From Caballeronia sp. NK8 (GTDB lineage Bacteria > Pseudomonadota > Gammaproteobacteria > Burkholderiales > Burkholderiaceae): 64,000 nucleotides of DNA. The translations under genes were made by a program, and so were the position numbers. The notes below the pieces were generated by a model. That model ran no database searches. It had not been told where the DNA came from and saw only the letters and a program-made list of their open reading frames with translations. Positions 18,555 to 63,374 of the stretch are shown here, one piece after another. The DNA lies in contig NZ_AP024328.1 of NCBI RefSeq assembly GCF_018408855.1, forward strand, positions 62,001-126,000, given 5' to 3'. Numbering within the stretch: the stretch's first letter is position 1; every line of letters starts with the position of its first letter.

Positions 18555-19028
18555 ATGCTAAGAAGCAGGCTCTGTTGGGTCGCATTACTCTTGGTTCTGC
18601 AGGCCTGTCAGACTCCTCCACTTCCCGAGAGCGCAGGCGAACGAAACTCTAGATTCACCTATATACCGATTGATCCGTTGCCGACCTCAGCGAGCTTGGG
18701 GGATAGTTGCCCAGACGGCTATTCAGTCGAACCATATATGGATCTATTTCCAGACCAAGCGGTGCGGATAGCGATTGCATCGTTCGACGTGCAAGGGAAT
18801 TTGTCGATTGGTCCAGCAGCAAAGTTCGGGACGGAAAACAATATCTATCAGGTCACCATGGACTTCATTTCGGTAGACACTAAGAACGCAACTGTGTTTG
18901 TCGAAGGTATTTTCGGCAACTGGGGGAGGGGCAGCCCCGTCCGGTGTAGCTAAGCCGGCTTACAAAATCACAAAGGACCCGGATAATCCGGCTTGGGCAA
19001 GCTACGATAAGAACAAAAGTTACCCTAA

Positions 19029-19931
19029 GAGGCGCTAACAAAATGACGTTCGCAGTTGTCGCCAGCATATGATGCAGCAAGCGATTTTCATGAAGGCTTC
19101 GTGGATAAACGCGAGCCGTTCGAAGCGGATGCGCAGTCGGCGGAAGTTGTGAAGCCACGAAATGGTCCGCTCCACGACCCAGCGTGTTTTACCCAATCCG
19201 CTGCCGTGAGGCTGGCCGCGCCGAGCAATTTCCGTGGCAATGCCCGCTGCGTGCAACGGACGTCGATGTTTGTCGTGGTCGTAGCCTCTGTCGCCTTGAA
19301 CGACCCGAGGCTTCGATAGTGGTCTGCCAGGCTTGCCGCTGATGGGCGGAATAGCCTCGACCAGTGCTTGAAGTTGAGTGACGTCGTTGCGGTTGGCGCC
19401 GGTCAGTATCACCGCGAGCGGAATGCCCTGCGCTTCGGTGAGGAGGTGGTGCTTTGAACCGGGTCGCGCGCGATCTGTGGGATTCGGTCCCGTTTTTGAC
19501 CCGCGCCCATAGCACGGATTGAAGAGGAGTCGACGATGACTCGAGACCAGTCGATTTGGTCGGCGGCCCGAAGCCGCGTAAGGAGCAACTCGTGCAACTC
19601 GTCCCAGACGCCTGCCTCCTGCCAGTCACGCAGGCGACGCCAGCAACTCATGCCACTGCCGCAACCCATCTCGCGAGGAAGAAGGTCCCAGCGCAGGCCA
19701 GTCTGCAAGACGAAGAGGATGCCTGTGAGCACCGCACGATTGTCGAGCGGTTTGCGCCCTGGGTAACGGTGGCGTCGTAGTTTTGGAGGGGGCAGTAACG
19801 GTTCGATGAGTGCCCAGAGTTCGTCGTCGAGTATAGGTTTAGCCATGTTCCTTTCATCGCCGAAACAATGAACAGGTTAACAGCATTCATCGAGGGTTAG
19901 CAGCCCCTTTTCTTCATTTTGTTAAGGGTTC
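19029..19931 (-). mobile_element. IS5-family insertion sequence, 903 bp
   Basis: Terminal inverted repeats are GAGGCGCTAACAAAATG (left, 19029-19045) and GAACCCTTAACAAAATG (right, read inward from 19931), matching at 13 of 17 positions. They are flanked by a TAA target duplication (19026-19028 and 19932-19934). It contains one minus-strand transposase in two frames. Size, TA-type target and orfA/orfB layout fit the IS427-like part of the IS5 family. It interrupts the lipoprotein pseudogene. Confidence 0.88.
19035..19846 (-). CDS. IS5-family transposase (two frames, probable programmed -1 frameshift)
   Basis: The first frame (19846-19409) starts MAKPILDDELWALIEPLLPP and holds the DUF4096-like N-terminus plus the first catalytic Asp in VIVDSSSIRAM. 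The second frame (to 19035) carries ILTGANRNDVTQL, the second Asp in GDRGYDHDKHR, and the catalytic Glu in RWVVERTISWLHNFRRL. The two overlap. On the minus strand a run of five A after GGTC (near 19487) lets Lys-tRNA slip back one base, giving GQKTGPNPTDRARPGS and joining the frames. The protein cuts and moves the IS by DDE chemistry. It appears intact if the slippage works. Confidence 0.88.
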
Positions 19932-20448
19932 TAAATCAAACTTGGGAGAACCGGTTGCGGTCCCTGTTTACGTCGGTGTCGGGTTGCGACTGATTGCAAC
20001 CGTTCGCGTGCTTAAAGGCACTGTCAATCTTTCTAGTCTTTCGTCGATAACAGCGGGCGTCGAATCCGGAAAAGCGACTGGTTCGCTAGTGGTACAGACG
20101 CTGGGGGTCTCTGGCTCAAAGATTTCGGCTATGCTCCCAATGCCGAGCGAGCTGAATCAGACAACAATACAAAATGCAATTTTGGCGCTCGGGTCTATTA
20201 AAGCATTGTTATTCGATCCGACTACACACGTCGTACCGCGCGTCGTCGGAATCTACACCCCTATTGGCGGTGGGGAGGCTACCGTTAACCAGATAGTCTC
20301 AATCTTGGCTGAGGACAAACTAGTTGTCGAGGGCGAGTGCATACAAAACGACGTGACGGCTCGACAGGCGGAGGCTGCGTCCTCACCGGCCGGAGCGGTA
20401 AAGCCTCCCATAAAAAGCACGCCGGCTAAACGCACGATGCCTCGCTAG

Positions 20449-20910: not shown

Positions 20911-22029
20911 ATGGCTTTGATATTGGATAGACGCCAAAAGGGCGACCCTGGGGTTCACGTAATTCTCATCGGCGTCGGAACCTTTGCCAATGCCAGGGCT
21001 GCAGACCTCTTGGGGGACGATGCACCGAAGGGCGGCTTCGCCGACCTGGAGACACCGCTTCACTCAGTTGAGGCGTTCGCGGGGTGGCTGCAGACGGAGC
21101 TAGACGTGGCTGACACGCCACTCCAAACACTACGAGTTCTGGCGTCCTCTGCAAGCCGCACTTCTCGCCTCGGCGTCACGTCGCCAACGTTTAAAAACAT
21201 TGCGGACGAGGTTGGCGAGTGGTCTGACGATGTCGACTCCCATGAGGACAACCTAGCCATTTTCTATTTTTGCGGTCATGGACTGCTTATTGGGGAGACA
21301 CAGCTTCTCCTGGCGGAGGACTTTGGCTCGAATCGCCGCGCGCCATTCGAGGATTCTATTGAGCCGGAACTGCTGGCAAACGCCATGCGGCAAATGCAGG
21401 GACGCCGGCAGCTTTTCCTTATCGATGCCTGTAGTACAGAGGTCCCGTTTTCGCGGCGCTATGCGAATGTGCGCTCGAGGACCATCGTGCAAGAGGCGCA
21501 AAATCAAAACCTGGCCAAGTCGGAGCAGTGCCTCATTCGCGCAAGCAAGCTGGGAAGCCGTGCATTTGGTTCCGCAACTGGCCCTTCCGTGTTTATGGAT
21601 GCATTCCTACGAGCGATGAAGGGCGCGGGCGCCGTGTCGGCGCAAAGACGGCGGTGGGTGATCCATACTGATATGCTGAAGTTGGCGCTTTCATGGCTCA
21701 TGCAGTTGCGGCCCGAAGGCCAAGGCCAGGAGGTTTCCTTCGGAGGTGGCACTTTATCGAGTAATGTCTCATTCCACATGCTATCAGGTGACCCGTTGGT
21801 GCCTGTCCGCGTACTTTGCGAGCCAAGAGAGCTTGAGGCAGTGAGCGCATTGCACGTGGACAGTGCTCAGCACAGCGCCGCTGGCAATTGGCCAGAAAGC
21901 TTCGACATTGAACGCCGCGCCCATGATTTCGAGGCGATAGAGACGACTGCCGAAGGTGCGAAGGTTCATGGCCAGGTGCTACAAGAGGTAATTGCTCCGC
22001 CATTCGTGAACGTGTATATACCGTGTTAG
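20911..22029 (+). CDS. Caspase-family (peptidase C14-like) protein
   Basis: 372 aa from ATG 20911; an in-frame TTG at 20887 would add 8 residues. The fold is read from VHVILIGVGTFANARAADLLG (first strand), a long helical stretch LHSVEAFAGWLQTEL, then NLAIFYFCGHGLLIG with catalytic His (H123) and RRQLFLIDACSTE with catalytic Cys (C174). This is the caspase/metacaspase His-Cys dyad in its correct context. Family members cut proteins after specific residues; in bacteria many work in defence or programmed cell death. The C-terminal 150 residues are not a known domain. There is no signal peptide, so it is cytoplasmic. It is first in a tight three-gene operon (10-bp gap, then overlap). Confidence 0.88.
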   Translation: MALILDRRQKGDPGVHVILIGVGTFANARAADLLGDDAPKGGFADLETPLHSVEAFAGWLQTELDVADTPLQTLRVLASSASRTSRLGVTSPTFKNIADEVGEWSDDVDSHEDNLAIFYFCGHGLLIGETQLLLAEDFGSNRRAPFEDSIEPELLANAMRQMQGRRQLFLIDACSTEVPFSRRYANVRSRTIVQEAQNQNLAKSEQCLIRASKLGSRAFGSATGPSVFMDAFLRAMKGAGAVSAQRRRWVIHTDMLKLALSWLMQLRPEGQGQEVSFGGGTLSSNVSFHMLSGDPLVPVRVLCEPRELEAVSALHVDSAQHSAAGNWPESFDIERRAHDFEAIETTAEGAKVHGQVLQEVIAPPFVNVYIPC

Positions 22030-22039
22030 GAGCAAACTC

Positions 22040-23482
22040 GTGAGTACGGTGGTTCATTTCGATTTCGGCGCAGGTCAACCGCGCGGCACCAGACTGCCCC
22101 GGGTCGCACTAGCGGACGTGTTCGAACTTTATGGCGGTAACGCTGACGAGCGACTTGTTGCCGGAAGTGTTGTCATCGATCTTGATTTGCGCGAAGGTAG
22201 GGCGCCCACTCGAGTTAATGTCAATCCGGGCGCTTTCCTAGTTCGCATTCGGACCCCCGACGGCCGACTATTGATGCGACAGGTTCATGTCGAGCGCAGT
22301 CGCGACCCCGCACTCGTTTTTTTGCCGAAGCAGCGAGCCCCAAGGCCGAAGAAACAACAGAAGGCGGTCGATGACTTGGTTGTTATACGCTCCGCCCCGC
22401 CCGATGCACTTTTCGGCGAGGACCACTTCAGGAAGCCGGCAGTTCCTCGGGACTGGTGGTCTGCACTGTCGATGGCGAACACGACTGAGCCGGTAACCAT
22501 CTCAAACCTGCCAGGATTTCACGCTAGTGAATTAGTAGAGCCTCGGTACGACTACATGGGCATCGCGCGACTTCAGGCAGAGCCTGTTGAAGAACTGCTG
22601 TCTTTGGATGGGCCGGCGCATGACGTTACGGCGAGGCTTGTCGGCGACATCGCTGCTGTGCAAGGCGCGAAATTACGCGGCAATCGAGAGTCGCCGTTTG
22701 CCAAATGGAAATTGCCGGTGCGCAATCGTGAACTGATAGGGAAAAGGTCTGATGAAGGAAAGGGGGCACGATATTTTTCTCTATCTTATCGCGCTGAGGG
22801 GCGGCTTACCCCCCTTCAAGTTGCATGTGTCCCGGGTAGGTGGGAGAAGCGAGATGGAAAGCTTGCAGACGTCTACGCGAACCACTATGAGCGTGACATC
22901 GGCGTTGCGTCGACCCGAACTCTCCGCGTCGAAGTTGATGACCCGGACCTTGGCGGCCTCTTAGACTTTCTGCAACAGGGAGATTTGAGCGGTTCAACTC
23001 GAATGCTGAATAACGCGACCGAGCTCCTCTATCGAAAATGGCAAAATCCGTACGCATCTGCTGCGGCAGGTTACGTGCTTGTGCAAGCGGGCCAATGGCA
23101 AGGGGAGAATGTGAACTGGACGCAATGGGTGCTCAACCTGGCGCACCGGTATCCGAGCCTAACGGACGGTGCAATTTTGTTCACGACATTGCTGCTGCAA
23201 GGTCGGTCCGACACCTTGAAAAACCTGAATTACGAGGGAGGAAGCAAAAATCGTTTCAGAACTGCCATAAGCGCCGCGTTCGAGGCCGTCCGTAGAGGTC
23301 CTCCTCTTTATCGCCACGGACTAAAAATGATGGCGACTAACCTTGCAATTCTTGAAGGTGAAGCGACCGGAGACCGTAAAACCTACCTTCAGCTTCGGTC
23401 TGCAAGCAAGTACATTCGAGAACTCTCGATGCGCGTTGATCCCAGCCAACCATTCTGTGTGTTCGATGTCAGCACTGACTAG
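22040..23482 (+). CDS. Unknown 480-aa protein of the caspase-MBL operon
   Basis: GTG start with GGAG 7 nt upstream. No family recognised. An N-terminal beta-rich part (residues 1-100) reads like a carrier or sensor domain: VVHFDFGAGQPRGTRLP, VVIDLDLREGRAPTRVNVNPGAFLVRIRTPDGRLLMRQV. A Lys-rich linker (about 95-108) follows, then a mixed domain (110-300) and an alpha-helical C-terminal domain (about 300-480). The helical part has TPR-like texture (AAAGYVLVQAGQWQGENVNWTQWVLNLAHRYP and FRTAISAAFEAVRRGPPLYRHGLKMMATNLAILEG). Its position between a protease and a hydrolase suggests a substrate, scaffold or sensor for the caspase. The stop overlaps the next gene. Confidence 0.75.
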   Translation: MSTVVHFDFGAGQPRGTRLPRVALADVFELYGGNADERLVAGSVVIDLDLREGRAPTRVNVNPGAFLVRIRTPDGRLLMRQVHVERSRDPALVFLPKQRAPRPKKQQKAVDDLVVIRSAPPDALFGEDHFRKPAVPRDWWSALSMANTTEPVTISNLPGFHASELVEPRYDYMGIARLQAEPVEELLSLDGPAHDVTARLVGDIAAVQGAKLRGNRESPFAKWKLPVRNRELIGKRSDEGKGARYFSLSYRAEGRLTPLQVACVPGRWEKRDGKLADVYANHYERDIGVASTRTLRVEVDDPDLGGLLDFLQQGDLSGSTRMLNNATELLYRKWQNPYASAAAGYVLVQAGQWQGENVNWTQWVLNLAHRYPSLTDGAILFTTLLLQGRSDTLKNLNYEGGSKNRFRTAISAAFEAVRRGPPLYRHGLKMMATNLAILEGEATGDRKTYLQLRSASKYIRELSMRVDPSQPFCVFDVSTD

Positions 23483-24596
23483 CGCTGTTGAGAGGTCGCA
23501 GCCTTGGGTGGAAGTCCACGCGTTAGCAGCCGAGCATGGCGACTGCATCGTGCTGAGCTACGGCGATGGTGACGCTCATTTCCGCCTAGTGGTGGATGCA
23601 GGAGTGGCCTCCACCTCGGACCGACTGCGGTGCGTGCTCGACGAAAGCGCCGATGCGATTTGCGAGCTCCTAGTTGTTACCCATATCGACCTCGACCACA
23701 TCGGAGGAACGCTTTCGTTGCTCGCGGACAGGTCTATTGCCACTCGCTTCAATGATATATGGTTCAACGGACGGCAGCACCTGGAAGTGGGACGCGAATC
23801 AATGGGAGTTTCGGAGGGCAAGCGACTAGCGGAATTGCTTGATTGCGAAGACACCTCCTGGAATGCGGCGTTCGGTGGGAATGCTGTTTGCCTATCGGCT
23901 GGTGACGTTCCGGTGCGTAAGACGCTACCAATCTCCAAAGCTGCTATCACCATTCTTTCGCCCTCGATGAAGGGACTTGCCGACCTGAGGCGCCTCTGGG
24001 ACATATGGGAGGAGCGTCAGAAACAAATGGCAGGAAGGCCCATCAACGCAGACGGGGTAACAGCTGGACAGGACGCACAAGACATCGAGATTCTAAGTGT
24101 CGCGCCGCTTAGCATTACGGATTTGGCAGACACAAAGACTAGGACAGATAGCTCGGTCACGAACGGCAGCTCCATCGCTTTCATCTTCGACTATGGTGGG
24201 TTCCGGATCTTACTGGGCGGGGATGCGCATGCCAGTGTGCTGCTCAAGGCGGTCACGAAGCTCCCGGCAGAGATGTTAAACCTTGATGTGTTCAAGCTTC
24301 CTCACCACGGGAGCGCAGCCAACCTGACTAAACAGCTTGCGATGAAGCTGCCGGCTCGAAAGTACTTGCTGACAACGGACGGCGAGCGCCACGACACCCA
24401 CCCCAATGACGTCGCGATCGCACGCGCCTTAACCGTCACGCCTGACGCCGAGCTGCTATTCAACTATCCGAATAAGGCATATGAGCGTTGGGCGAACAGA
24501 CCTTCTGAAAGTGGCTATCCGTTCAAGGTGCGGGCCGGGGGCGGCGACGAGGGTATCCGTTTCCGCCTTGAGTGGGCTGGCCAGGGTGCCCGGTAA
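23466..24596 (+). CDS. ComEC-like MBL-fold metallohydrolase of the caspase operon
   Basis: 376 aa from the ATG at 23466, inside the end of the preceding gene; an upstream in-frame ATG at 23343 would give an unlikely 120-bp overlap. EHGDCIVLSYGDGD (23-36) matches ComEC/Rec2-type MBL starts. The metal site is THIDLDHIGG (H73, D75, D77, H78), in which the canonical second His is Asp. FRILLGGDAHASVL and DVFKLPHHGS supply the remaining Asp and His ligands. Relatives hydrolyse nucleic acids or nucleotides, and some are partners of proteases in predicted conflict systems. It is cytoplasmic, without membrane helices, unlike true ComEC. It probably acts with the caspase-like protein. Confidence 0.88.
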   Translation: MSALTSAVERSQPWVEVHALAAEHGDCIVLSYGDGDAHFRLVVDAGVASTSDRLRCVLDESADAICELLVVTHIDLDHIGGTLSLLADRSIATRFNDIWFNGRQHLEVGRESMGVSEGKRLAELLDCEDTSWNAAFGGNAVCLSAGDVPVRKTLPISKAAITILSPSMKGLADLRRLWDIWEERQKQMAGRPINADGVTAGQDAQDIEILSVAPLSITDLADTKTRTDSSVTNGSSIAFIFDYGGFRILLGGDAHASVLLKAVTKLPAEMLNLDVFKLPHHGSAANLTKQLAMKLPARKYLLTTDGERHDTHPNDVAIARALTVTPDAELLFNYPNKAYERWANRPSESGYPFKVRAGGGDEGIRFRLEWAGQGAR

Positions 24597-60400: not shown

Positions 60401-63374
60401 TTGTGGGCACTTCGAGCGAAATCAAGCCATCCGTCCGGTGGGCTGCCGCGCGCTGACTTATCCATCGGAGATGGCCGTCTTAGTGCAGAAGAGATAATAA
60501 GGGAGATCCGTCCTGACGCGTACCCGTCTAAGACGAATCCAAGACTTATGGTGTCTATTCATGTAAGCGGAGAGGACAAGACCTCTCAGATCAGCGACTG
60601 GGCGATCTACTGGAGCGACAAGTACGAGAGCCTTCAACTGACATGTTATTTCCCATCCAGGAAGACATTCACTCGCCCGCTCAGTGACTGCCGCGTTGTT
60701 CCCACTCGTGAGTTGGACGAGATGTTGCTCGCAAAGCCAGGTGGCGCATCCGTTCAGTCCGTCGAGAGAGCGACAATCTACGGCGAGCGGTATGCCGTGG
60801 TCTACTATCCTGGCGCCTCCAAGCCGTACGTTCACAAATTGAACAGCGTCGAGTTCGTCAAGCCGACAACAATGAAGGAAGGGTCTGTCTTTCGGTATTT
60901 TGTCGACGTGGCGAACGCCCGAAGGGAAAACGCGGGTTCAAAGATCCAGCGCGAGATCGCGGCCAATATCGTCCGCCAGCTAGAGAGCCTGCCTCCCCGG
61001 CCGGACACTGCCTTGAACGCCTATTGCACGGGGCAGAACGGGATGCAGGCGCAAGTCGATGGTCTGATCTTTCCATTTGGCGTGAACGAAAGCCAGCTCA
61101 CGGCGGTCGAGCAAGGGTTCCGCGCGCAGATTAGCGTCATTGAGGGGCCGCCTGGAACCGGCAAGACGCAGACCATTCTAAACATCCTTGCCAACATCCT
61201 GCTGCAGGGTAAGACGGTCGCGGTACTGTCCAACAACAATCCGGCCGTGGAGAACGTTTACACGAAGCTGGAGAAAGCCGGGCTTGACCATTTGGTTGCC
61301 AAGCTCGGCAGCAAGGAAAACCGGGCGGCTTTCTTCGACAATCTACCTCCCCGGCCGTCCGTCGAACCCGAGCCCGCACCGACCATGGACGAAATCCAAG
61401 CGCTGCTTGCACGGTTGAGGCGGCATCTCCACGATCACAACACAGCAGCGCAATTGCAGGCTGACATCGATGAACTACGTATCGAACGTCGCCATCTGCT
61501 GCAGTGGCAGGACGAGAACGGGCTACAGGTTCGAGCGTCTCTGGACAAGTACGGCTTGTCGCCAGACAAGACGTCGGACCTGATAGCCTACCTATCCCAT
61601 CTTGGAGAGCAGCCGATTCGGCTCAAGGACCGAATCGAGCTGCTGTTCAATTTCAGGATTTTCCGCGCCAAGCCTTTCGAGAAGGAGTCCGCCAGTCCAT
61701 CATTCATGCTTTGCAGATGCACTACTACGACAAGGCGCTGCAAAACAAGGAGGCGGGCCTTGGGGGCATGCCGCGAGTCGCTCGCGCAAGGCAATTTCAC
61801 GGCGTCGCTGGAGGCGTTGACGACAGGGTCGATGCGCTACCTCAAGCAACACTTGCATGCGCATACCACTGAGCCAGGTGGCATCAATGAGGACCAGTAT
61901 CGGAAGCAGTTCGACCACTTCTTGCAACGCTTTCCCATCCTCGGTAGCAGCACGCACTCCATCGTCAACTCGATCGCACCGGGCGCAGCCCTCGACTACG
62001 TCATCATCGACGAGGCCTCACAGCAGGACATCGTACCGGGCATCCTGGCGCTGGGCTGCGCGAAGAACCTGATCGTCGTTGGGGACAGCCGTCAGTTAGC
62101 TCACATTCCAGTGGCGTCGGGCTTCGAACCCCGATAACGCGTACGATTGCGAGCGATACAGCCTGCTCGATTCGTGCACCAGCGTATTTGGGGATGCGTT
62201 GCCGAGGACTCTGCTTAAAGAGCACTACCGCTGCCATCCCAGGATCATCCAGTTCTGCAACCAGCAGTTCTATGACAACGCCTTGATTCCGATGACCCGG
62301 GACAACGGCGAAACCCGCTGCGACTGGTGGTGACCGCCAAGGCAACCACGCGCGCAACAACACCAATCTCAGGGAACTGGATTCATTGCGCAAGGTGCTC
62401 GACGATGAGGACGAGCCTGTCATGCTGGAAGGCGACGGCCGTGGCTTCATTGCCCCATTCCGGGCGCAGGTCCGCGCTCTCCGATAAGAATTTGCCCGCA
62501 GATTTCGTCAGGGACACCGTCCACAAATTCCAAGGCAGGGAATGCGACGAGATCGTATTCTCCACTGTATTGGGACAGGAAGCGTGACAACCGCGAGCGA
62601 TGGATTTCGTGGATGACCCCCGTATCGTCAATGTGGCGGTGTCACGCGCCAAAAACGGATCGATTCACGGCGGTGACGGGCGATGAAGTCTTCACCGGCG
62701 AATAACGGCCCGATTGGCCGCCTTGATGCGCTATCGTCGAATACCGACGCAGAGGACAAGCAGATTAAACTCACGTGCTCGCCGTCGTTGTCGGCCTTCG
62801 AGCCTCTTCTGTTATATGGTGAATAACGAACCAGGTCCCTGAATGCTGGGCTTGAACGCCAGGTTTACGGCGCGAAGATTCCGAATTACAAATCGAGGCA
62901 GAATCGTGGCTACAGCCTGCCTTCCGTGAAAGCGCTTTACCGACCCGTCACGCCAGGCCATCACCTTTCACACGGCAGTCTGCTGAACCAGGTCGCGCTC
63001 GCCTACTAAACCCGGCGCTGACGGCGGAGAGAACGGGGCATACCATGCGCAACGCGCGCAGTTGCGACTTCGTGCTGTATTTCAAAGTGGGGAAAACCCC
63101 GCTGAGAGTGATCGAAGTCGATGGCGCCTCCCATAACACAGCTGAGCAAGCGGCGCGAGATGCCTTGAAAAATAGCATCCTGGCGAAGAGCGGGCTTGCG
63201 ATCCTGCGGCTGCGGACAGTTGAAAGTGGAATTGAGGAGAAAGTGGAGGCGTTTCTTGCGGCGTGGGGGAAGCGGACGCTGACGTGGAACGTACAGCGGC
63301 AAAGGCATGATGGTCGTAAATCGACTTTTTTTTGCTCGCCCGCACTGTTGGTGCCGGAAGTGCATTTGCGGTGA
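60401..63374 (+). pseudogene. SF1 DNA/RNA helicase with C-terminal DUF2726-type nuclease domain, multiply frameshifted
   Basis: The N-terminal frame (to 62137) has Walker A IEGPPGTGKTQTILNIL (about 247) and Walker B DYVIIDEASQQDIVPG. Inside it, two compensating shifts (about 61690 and 61758) scramble the stretch that should read VRQSIIHALQMHYYDKALQN. After 62137 the gene continues in other frames: LKEHYRCHPRIIQFCNQQFY, then NNTNLRELDSLRKVL, then FVRDTVHKFQGRECDEIVFS (motif V), then DDPRIVNVAVSRAKN (motif VI). After a degraded gap, SCDFVLYFKVGKTPLRVIEV and ARDALKNSILAKSGLAILRL at 63060-63240 resemble DUF2726, a restriction-endonuclease-like fold. Helicases of this build occur in defence islands. 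At least six shifts make it non-functional. Confidence 0.82.

What the first reader, a model, noticed from the sequence alone, without database searches (positions are those of the whole stretch)
20911..24596. Three-gene caspase / unknown / ComEC-like MBL operon: candidate new conflict or cell-death system
A caspase-like protease with an intact His-Cys dyad (H123, C174), a 480-aa protein with no recognised family, and a soluble MBL hydrolase with HxDxDH and LPHHGS motifs are joined by a 10-bp gap and a 17-bp overlap. Caspase-like proteases and MBL hydrolases are established parts of predicted bacterial conflict systems. A protease, an unknown middle protein and a nuclease-like hydrolase suggest a triggered module in which the middle protein is the sensor or cleavage target. 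The Asp in place of the second metal His is a feature to track.
Basis: partly seen in the sequence, partly recalled or inferred. Interest (0 to 1): 0.85.

Follow-up and report, generated by a model that had tools for sequence, protein, structure and literature searches.

The report
Caspase-activated nuclease defence operon (Canu-type)
A three-gene bacterial operon in which a caspase-like protease and its partner protein very probably switch on a self-blocked DNA-cutting enzyme during virus attack; this kind of system was published in 2025, so this is a new, divergent example rather than a new kind.

The parts
20911..22029 (+). CanA-like caspase, 372 aa; dyad H123/C174; caspase domain about 13-291, then an all-beta C-terminal region about 287-371
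22040..23482 (+). CanB-like middle protein, 480 aa: beta-sandwich N-terminus, disordered stretch 100-129, further beta structure to 299, helical TPR-like C-terminus from 302
   Evidence: PF27295.1 on all 36 homologues listed; model pLDDT 81.1; weak TPR-like and FN3-like matches
23466..24596 (+). CanC-like MBL pro-nuclease, 376 aa, HxDxDH at 73-78 and HHGS at 280-283
   Evidence: PADLOC LmuA 7.1e-59; profile matches solved ComEC chains, best 2.8e-13; metal residues invariant in 34 of 34
23796..23807 (+). Predicted gating-loop site 1, residues 111-114 (ESMG) of the nuclease
   Evidence: alignment of 130 relatives; loop comparison
24087..24098 (+). Predicted gating-loop site 2, residues 208-211 (EILS) of the nuclease
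   Evidence: alignment of 130 relatives; loop comparison

Best explanation
The operon is a divergent Canu (caspase-nuclease, canABC-type) antiphage system. The caspase and the 480-aa protein form a complex that stays quiet until a sign of phage infection is sensed, directly or indirectly. The active caspase then cuts two flexible loops that cover the active site of the MBL nuclease, near residues 111-115 and 208-212. The freed ComEC-type nuclease degrades DNA and stops the infected cell. Shown here: gene order, families, conserved catalytic residues, co-inheritance, paired loop motifs. Known from the published K. aerogenes system only: the caspase-CanB complex, activation of the nuclease by it, phage defence. 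Inferred for this operon: trigger, cut sites, outcome.
For: Same three-gene order as the published system. Caspase model closest to MALT1, as reported for KaeCanA. MBL protein in the LmuA/Avs1a/RTasMBL family and close to ComEC. Of 14 distinct opened loci with a CanB-like gene, 13 have an adjacent or fused caspase and 13 an adjacent MBL nuclease. Natural caspase-CanB fusions P0036, P0246, L024, L097. Distances of the three proteins correlate at 0.976 to 0.986 over 21 loci. H123/D172/C174 conserved in 47 of 47 relatives and in 7 further loci outside that alignment. Loop tetrapeptides: E-x-(L/M/F/Y)-(G/A/S) in loop 2 of 11 of 11 caspase-linked loci and in loop 1 of 10 of 11; the two loops of one protein match above shuffles.
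Against: The window's second site ends in Ser, and most of its nearest relatives have Ala/Ser, whereas the paper reports conserved glycines. D172, two residues before the catalytic Cys, is from recall typical of caspase relatives that cut after Arg or Lys; no loop column has Arg or Lys in more than 40% of 130 rows. L097 is a caspase-CanB fusion without the nuclease. No family model for Canu was hit and the NCBIfam cut-offs were not reached. No recognised defence genes among the 10 neighbouring proteins scanned. The loop statistics ignore relatedness.
Confidence: 0.8

Rival explanations
1. The caspase acts mainly by cleaving other host or phage proteins, as an executioner protease, and the MBL protein is an independent nuclease effector kept in the same operon.
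For: One related locus, L097, has the caspase-CanB fusion without the nuclease.
Against: The nuclease is adjacent in 13 of 14 loci and evolves with the caspase. Matching tetrapeptides in both loops fit cleavage by a partner protease.
Confidence: 0.1
2. It is a Canu relative whose middle protein is an unrelated sensor to KaeCanB and whose trigger differs; the effector step is the same.
For: The paper says canu loci vary in organisation with several genes of unknown function. The middle protein forms a family of its own (PF27295). Loop residues have shifted in this clade.
Against: Gene order and the suggested Ig-like/TPR make-up agree with the published description. KaeCanB was not available, so this is open. 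It overlaps with the best explanation rather than excluding it.
Confidence: 0.27
3. The operon is decaying or silent, a relic with no present function.
For: C. temeraria, the nearest relative found with the same flanks, has an in-frame deletion of about 420 bp that removes HxDxDH. An IS lies about 970 bp upstream. The simple scan found no promoter-like site on the + strand (weak).
Against: All three reading frames of the window are intact with their catalytic residues.
Confidence: 0.05

Closest known systems
Canu (caspase-nuclease) system, prototype KaeCanABC of Klebsiella aerogenes (PMC12799240)
   Same: Gene order caspase, middle gene, MBL nuclease; caspase like MALT1; ComEC-like nuclease of the same family; two loops with a shared motif
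   Different: The window's second loop site ends in Ser instead of Gly; homology of the middle proteins was not tested; phage range and trigger unknown
Avs1 (AVAST type 1) MBL nuclease Avs1a
   Same: Same nuclease family (PADLOC 2e-35; NCBIfam 169.7 bits)
   Different: Below the NCBIfam equivalog cut-off of 420; here the operon partner is a caspase, not a trypsin-STAND protein
Hachiman with nuclease-protease pair (HamMAB) and Lamassu/ABC-3C with MBL nuclease
   Same: Related gated nuclease (LmuA model 7.1e-59; HamA-linked L013 and ABC-3C-linked L012 align)
   Different: No HamA, helicase or ABC-3C genes in the window operon
EACC1-associated caspase (NCBIfam NF047832)
   Same: Weak caspase-domain similarity, 34.3 bits
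   Different: Far below the cut-off of 140 bits

Membership tests
Canu (CanABC) | Three-gene locus with a caspase gene upstream and an MBL nuclease gene downstream | tested here: met
   order kept in the related loci
Canu (CanABC) | Caspase structurally like MALT1 with a catalytic His-Cys dyad | tested here: met
   MALT1 first in Foldseek and VIA-align; H123/C174 invariant in 47 of 47
Canu (CanABC) | C-terminal Ig-like domain on the caspase | tested here: inconclusive
   A confident all-beta region follows the caspase domain, but it was not searched alone
Canu (CanABC) | Nuclease belongs to the gated MBL nuclease family | tested here: met
Canu (CanABC) | Two gating insertions with conserved glycines | tested here: inconclusive
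   Gly/Gly in 77 of 130 relatives; the window has Gly at site 1 and Ser at site 2; the nuclease was not modelled
Canu (CanABC) | Middle protein homologous to KaeCanB and in complex with the caspase | not testable with these tools
   KaeCanB sequence not obtained; natural caspase fusions of the window's family exist
Canu (CanABC) | Caspase complex converts the nuclease to an active DNase; phage defence | not testable with these tools
   needs experiment
Canu (CanABC) | Found in defence islands or near transposases | tested here: inconclusive
   An IS4/5-family element lies at about 19017-19943; the 10 neighbouring proteins scanned show no recognised defence gene
Avs1 (AVAST type 1) | MBL protein above the NCBIfam Avs1a cut-off of 420 bits | tested here: not met
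   169.7 bits
EACC1-associated caspase | Caspase above the NF047832 cut-off of 140 bits | tested here: not met
   34.3 bits

The most novel reading that the evidence does not exclude
The window represents a separate Canu lineage. Its middle protein (PF27295) is a different sensor family from KaeCanB, and its caspase and nuclease have shifted together to a new cleavage specificity, since both loop sites changed from Gly/Gly to Ala/Ser (Gly/Ser in the window). The paired tetrapeptides in the two loops would then be a readable natural record of activating-protease specificity across bacteria, including loci whose protease is not yet recognised.
Probability: 0.27. Interest if true: 0.55.

Novelty: new member of a known kind. 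Interest (0 to 1): 0.36.

Why it matters
Canu is a recently found parallel between bacterial antiviral immunity and the caspase-activated DNase of animal cell death. A divergent example in Caballeronia, with relatives in Ralstonia, Dechloromonas, Variovorax, rhizobia and Streptomyces, shows how far the three-gene form reaches. The paired loop motifs give concrete predictions of cleavage sites and of how a protease and its pro-nuclease co-adapt, which can be tested on purified proteins.

Tried and rejected

Rejected. That HxDxDH is unusual. That the MBL protein is Avs1a proper. That Arg or Lys marks the cut site: no loop column has Arg or Lys in more than 40% of 130 rows, although D172 would fit such a specificity from recall.

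Selections before counts. A1 held 23 of 36 CanB hits plus the window. A5 held 29 of the 120 CanC hits listed (138 found) plus the window and 4 loci. A6 held 42 of 90 CanA hits plus the window and 4 loci. Of 68 plasmid records, 17 were opened: 7 with CanA, CanB and CanC, 1 (L019) with a CanB fragment and CanC, 9 with CanC but neither CanA nor CanB. One search dropped rows with a gap in the motif columns. Genome tallies score only the best candidates per genome, so they are lower bounds. Papers PMC7159879 and PMC8195603 (EACC1 caspases) were seen in a search listing only.

Full report
Observation. The caspase dyad is H123/C174; the MBL motifs are HIDLDH at 73 and LPHHGS at 278. Pfam gives Peptidase_C14 at 5.1e-9 and Lactamase_B at 3.8e-5, and nothing for the middle protein. 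PADLOC puts the MBL protein with the defence nucleases LmuA (7.1e-59), Avs1a (2e-35) and RTasMBL (6.5e-32). The window lies in a 9.2-Mb genome. The nearest named relative found is Caballeronia temeraria, with the same flanks.

What is known. In the paper searches I ran, one paper describes such operons: Tuck et al., Science 2025, PMC12799240. I saw its outline, found passages, part 1 of 6 of the text, sections 5 and 8 and the figure legends, not the supplements. It describes caspase-nuclease (canu) loci. In the three-gene Klebsiella aerogenes system, CanA is a caspase resembling MALT1 with a C-terminal Ig-like fold, CanB co-purifies with CanA, and CanC is an MBL pro-nuclease. CanC's active site is thought to be blocked by two insertions with conserved glycines. 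CanAB converts CanC into a potent nuclease, and the system protects against phage T4, with escape mutations in dda. The authors say canu loci vary in organisation and contain TPR and Ig-like domains.

Nuclease. The profile matches solved ComEC chains (best 2.8e-13). H73, D75, D77 and H78 are invariant in 34 of 34 relatives and in 10 of 10 that include a HamA-linked and an ABC-3C-linked nuclease. The Asp is therefore the family norm.

Co-occurrence. I opened 14 distinct loci with a CanB-like gene. A caspase is adjacent or fused in 13 (not in L019, where CanB is itself a fragment) and the nuclease is adjacent in 13 (not in L097, a caspase-CanB fusion). In 21 loci with all three genes, pairwise distances of the three proteins correlate at 0.976 to 0.986, with 0 of 2000 permutations as high; among pairs more than 60% different the correlations are 0.47 to 0.68. 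Twelve of these 21 were put together through equal longest-contig lengths in the protein lists, which is indirect. Seen from the nuclease, the caspase partner is only one of several: of 17 opened plasmid loci, 7 have caspase and CanB, 1 a CanB fragment and 9 neither. The system is rare: the CanB profiles hit 2 of 58 genomes of the genus, 3 of 299 of the family, 2 of 369 of the class and 3 of 398 of the phylum, the window's own genome counted each time; these are lower bounds.

Gating loops. The two loops were located by alignment; the nuclease itself was not modelled. In 11 caspase-linked loci, loop 2 carries E-x-(L/M/F/Y)-(G/A/S) in 11 and loop 1 in 10 (L007 has Asp first). At the neighbouring position of loop 1, Ile, the residue at the published HamM cut site, stands in L013, L061, L062, L021 and L026, but not in L012, L063 or L064. 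Of the four loci with a trypsin match (L064 below the cut-off), two have the Ile and two do not. Among 130 relatives the last residues of the two motifs are Gly/Gly in 77, Ala/Ser in 19 and Gly/Ser in 3; the window has ESMG and EILS. In 58 proteins under 60% identical, the two tetrapeptides of one protein resemble each other more than after shuffling: P4 40 against 17.3, P3 13 against 4.8, P2 34 against 21.2, P1 44 against 37.5, all four 6 against 0.6. This suggests that both sites are read by one protease, though shared descent contributes. No loop column has Arg or Lys in more than 40% of rows, which speaks against an Arg/Lys cut, although D172 beside the catalytic Cys is, from recall, typical of Arg/Lys-specific caspase relatives.

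Decay in the relative. In C. temeraria an in-frame deletion of about 420 bp joins CanB(1-441) to CanC(107-369) and removes HxDxDH, so that nuclease should be dead, while the caspase keeps its dyad. The IS beside the window's operon is absent there.

Mechanism. Most likely, infection activates the CanA-CanB complex, the caspase cuts both loops of CanC, and the freed nuclease destroys DNA and halts the cell. The anatomy is shown here; the biochemistry is taken from the K. aerogenes system; trigger, cut sites and defence are inferred for this operon.

Verdict. A divergent new member of a known kind. The strict test, homology of the middle protein to KaeCanB, could not be run.

Noticed in passing
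L011:3416-6001, L017:3400-5979, L022:3443-5983: Three plasmid loci (Cupriavidus, Azospirillum, Sinorhizobium) pair the gated MBL nuclease with a roughly 850-aa protein of no recognised family, and each nuclease has the same tetrapeptide in both loops: DRLG/DRLG, DLLG/DLLG, DVLG/DVLG. The partner may be an unrecognised activating protease; by eye it has a His and a Cys in a CHAT-like setting, which no search confirmed.
   Followed up: partly
   Followed up: no
L003:9971-12112: In Caballeronia temeraria an in-frame deletion joins the middle protein to the nuclease and removes the HxDxDH motif.
   Followed up: yes
L019:5584-7185: On Agrobacterium plasmid pAt the CanB gene is only a fragment, with long ORFs upstream that look by eye like a Tn3-type transposase, and no caspase was found.
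   Followed up: partly
window 19017-19943: An IS4/5-family element (DUF4096 transposase, inverted arms 19017-19046 and 19914-19943) that is absent at the same place in C. temeraria.
   Followed up: partly
window 60401-62137: A 578-aa helicase-like AAA protein matching AAA_11 and the Schlafen group 3 helicase domain.
   Followed up: no
P0202: A caspase 86% identical to the window's is listed under the nematode Steinernema glaseri, probably from an associated bacterium.
   Followed up: no
L018:1874-9162: On an Agrobacterium plasmid the caspase/CanB/CanC genes stand beside a TIR-domain gene, a second caspase and a CHAT-domain gene, which looks like a small defence cluster.
   Followed up: no
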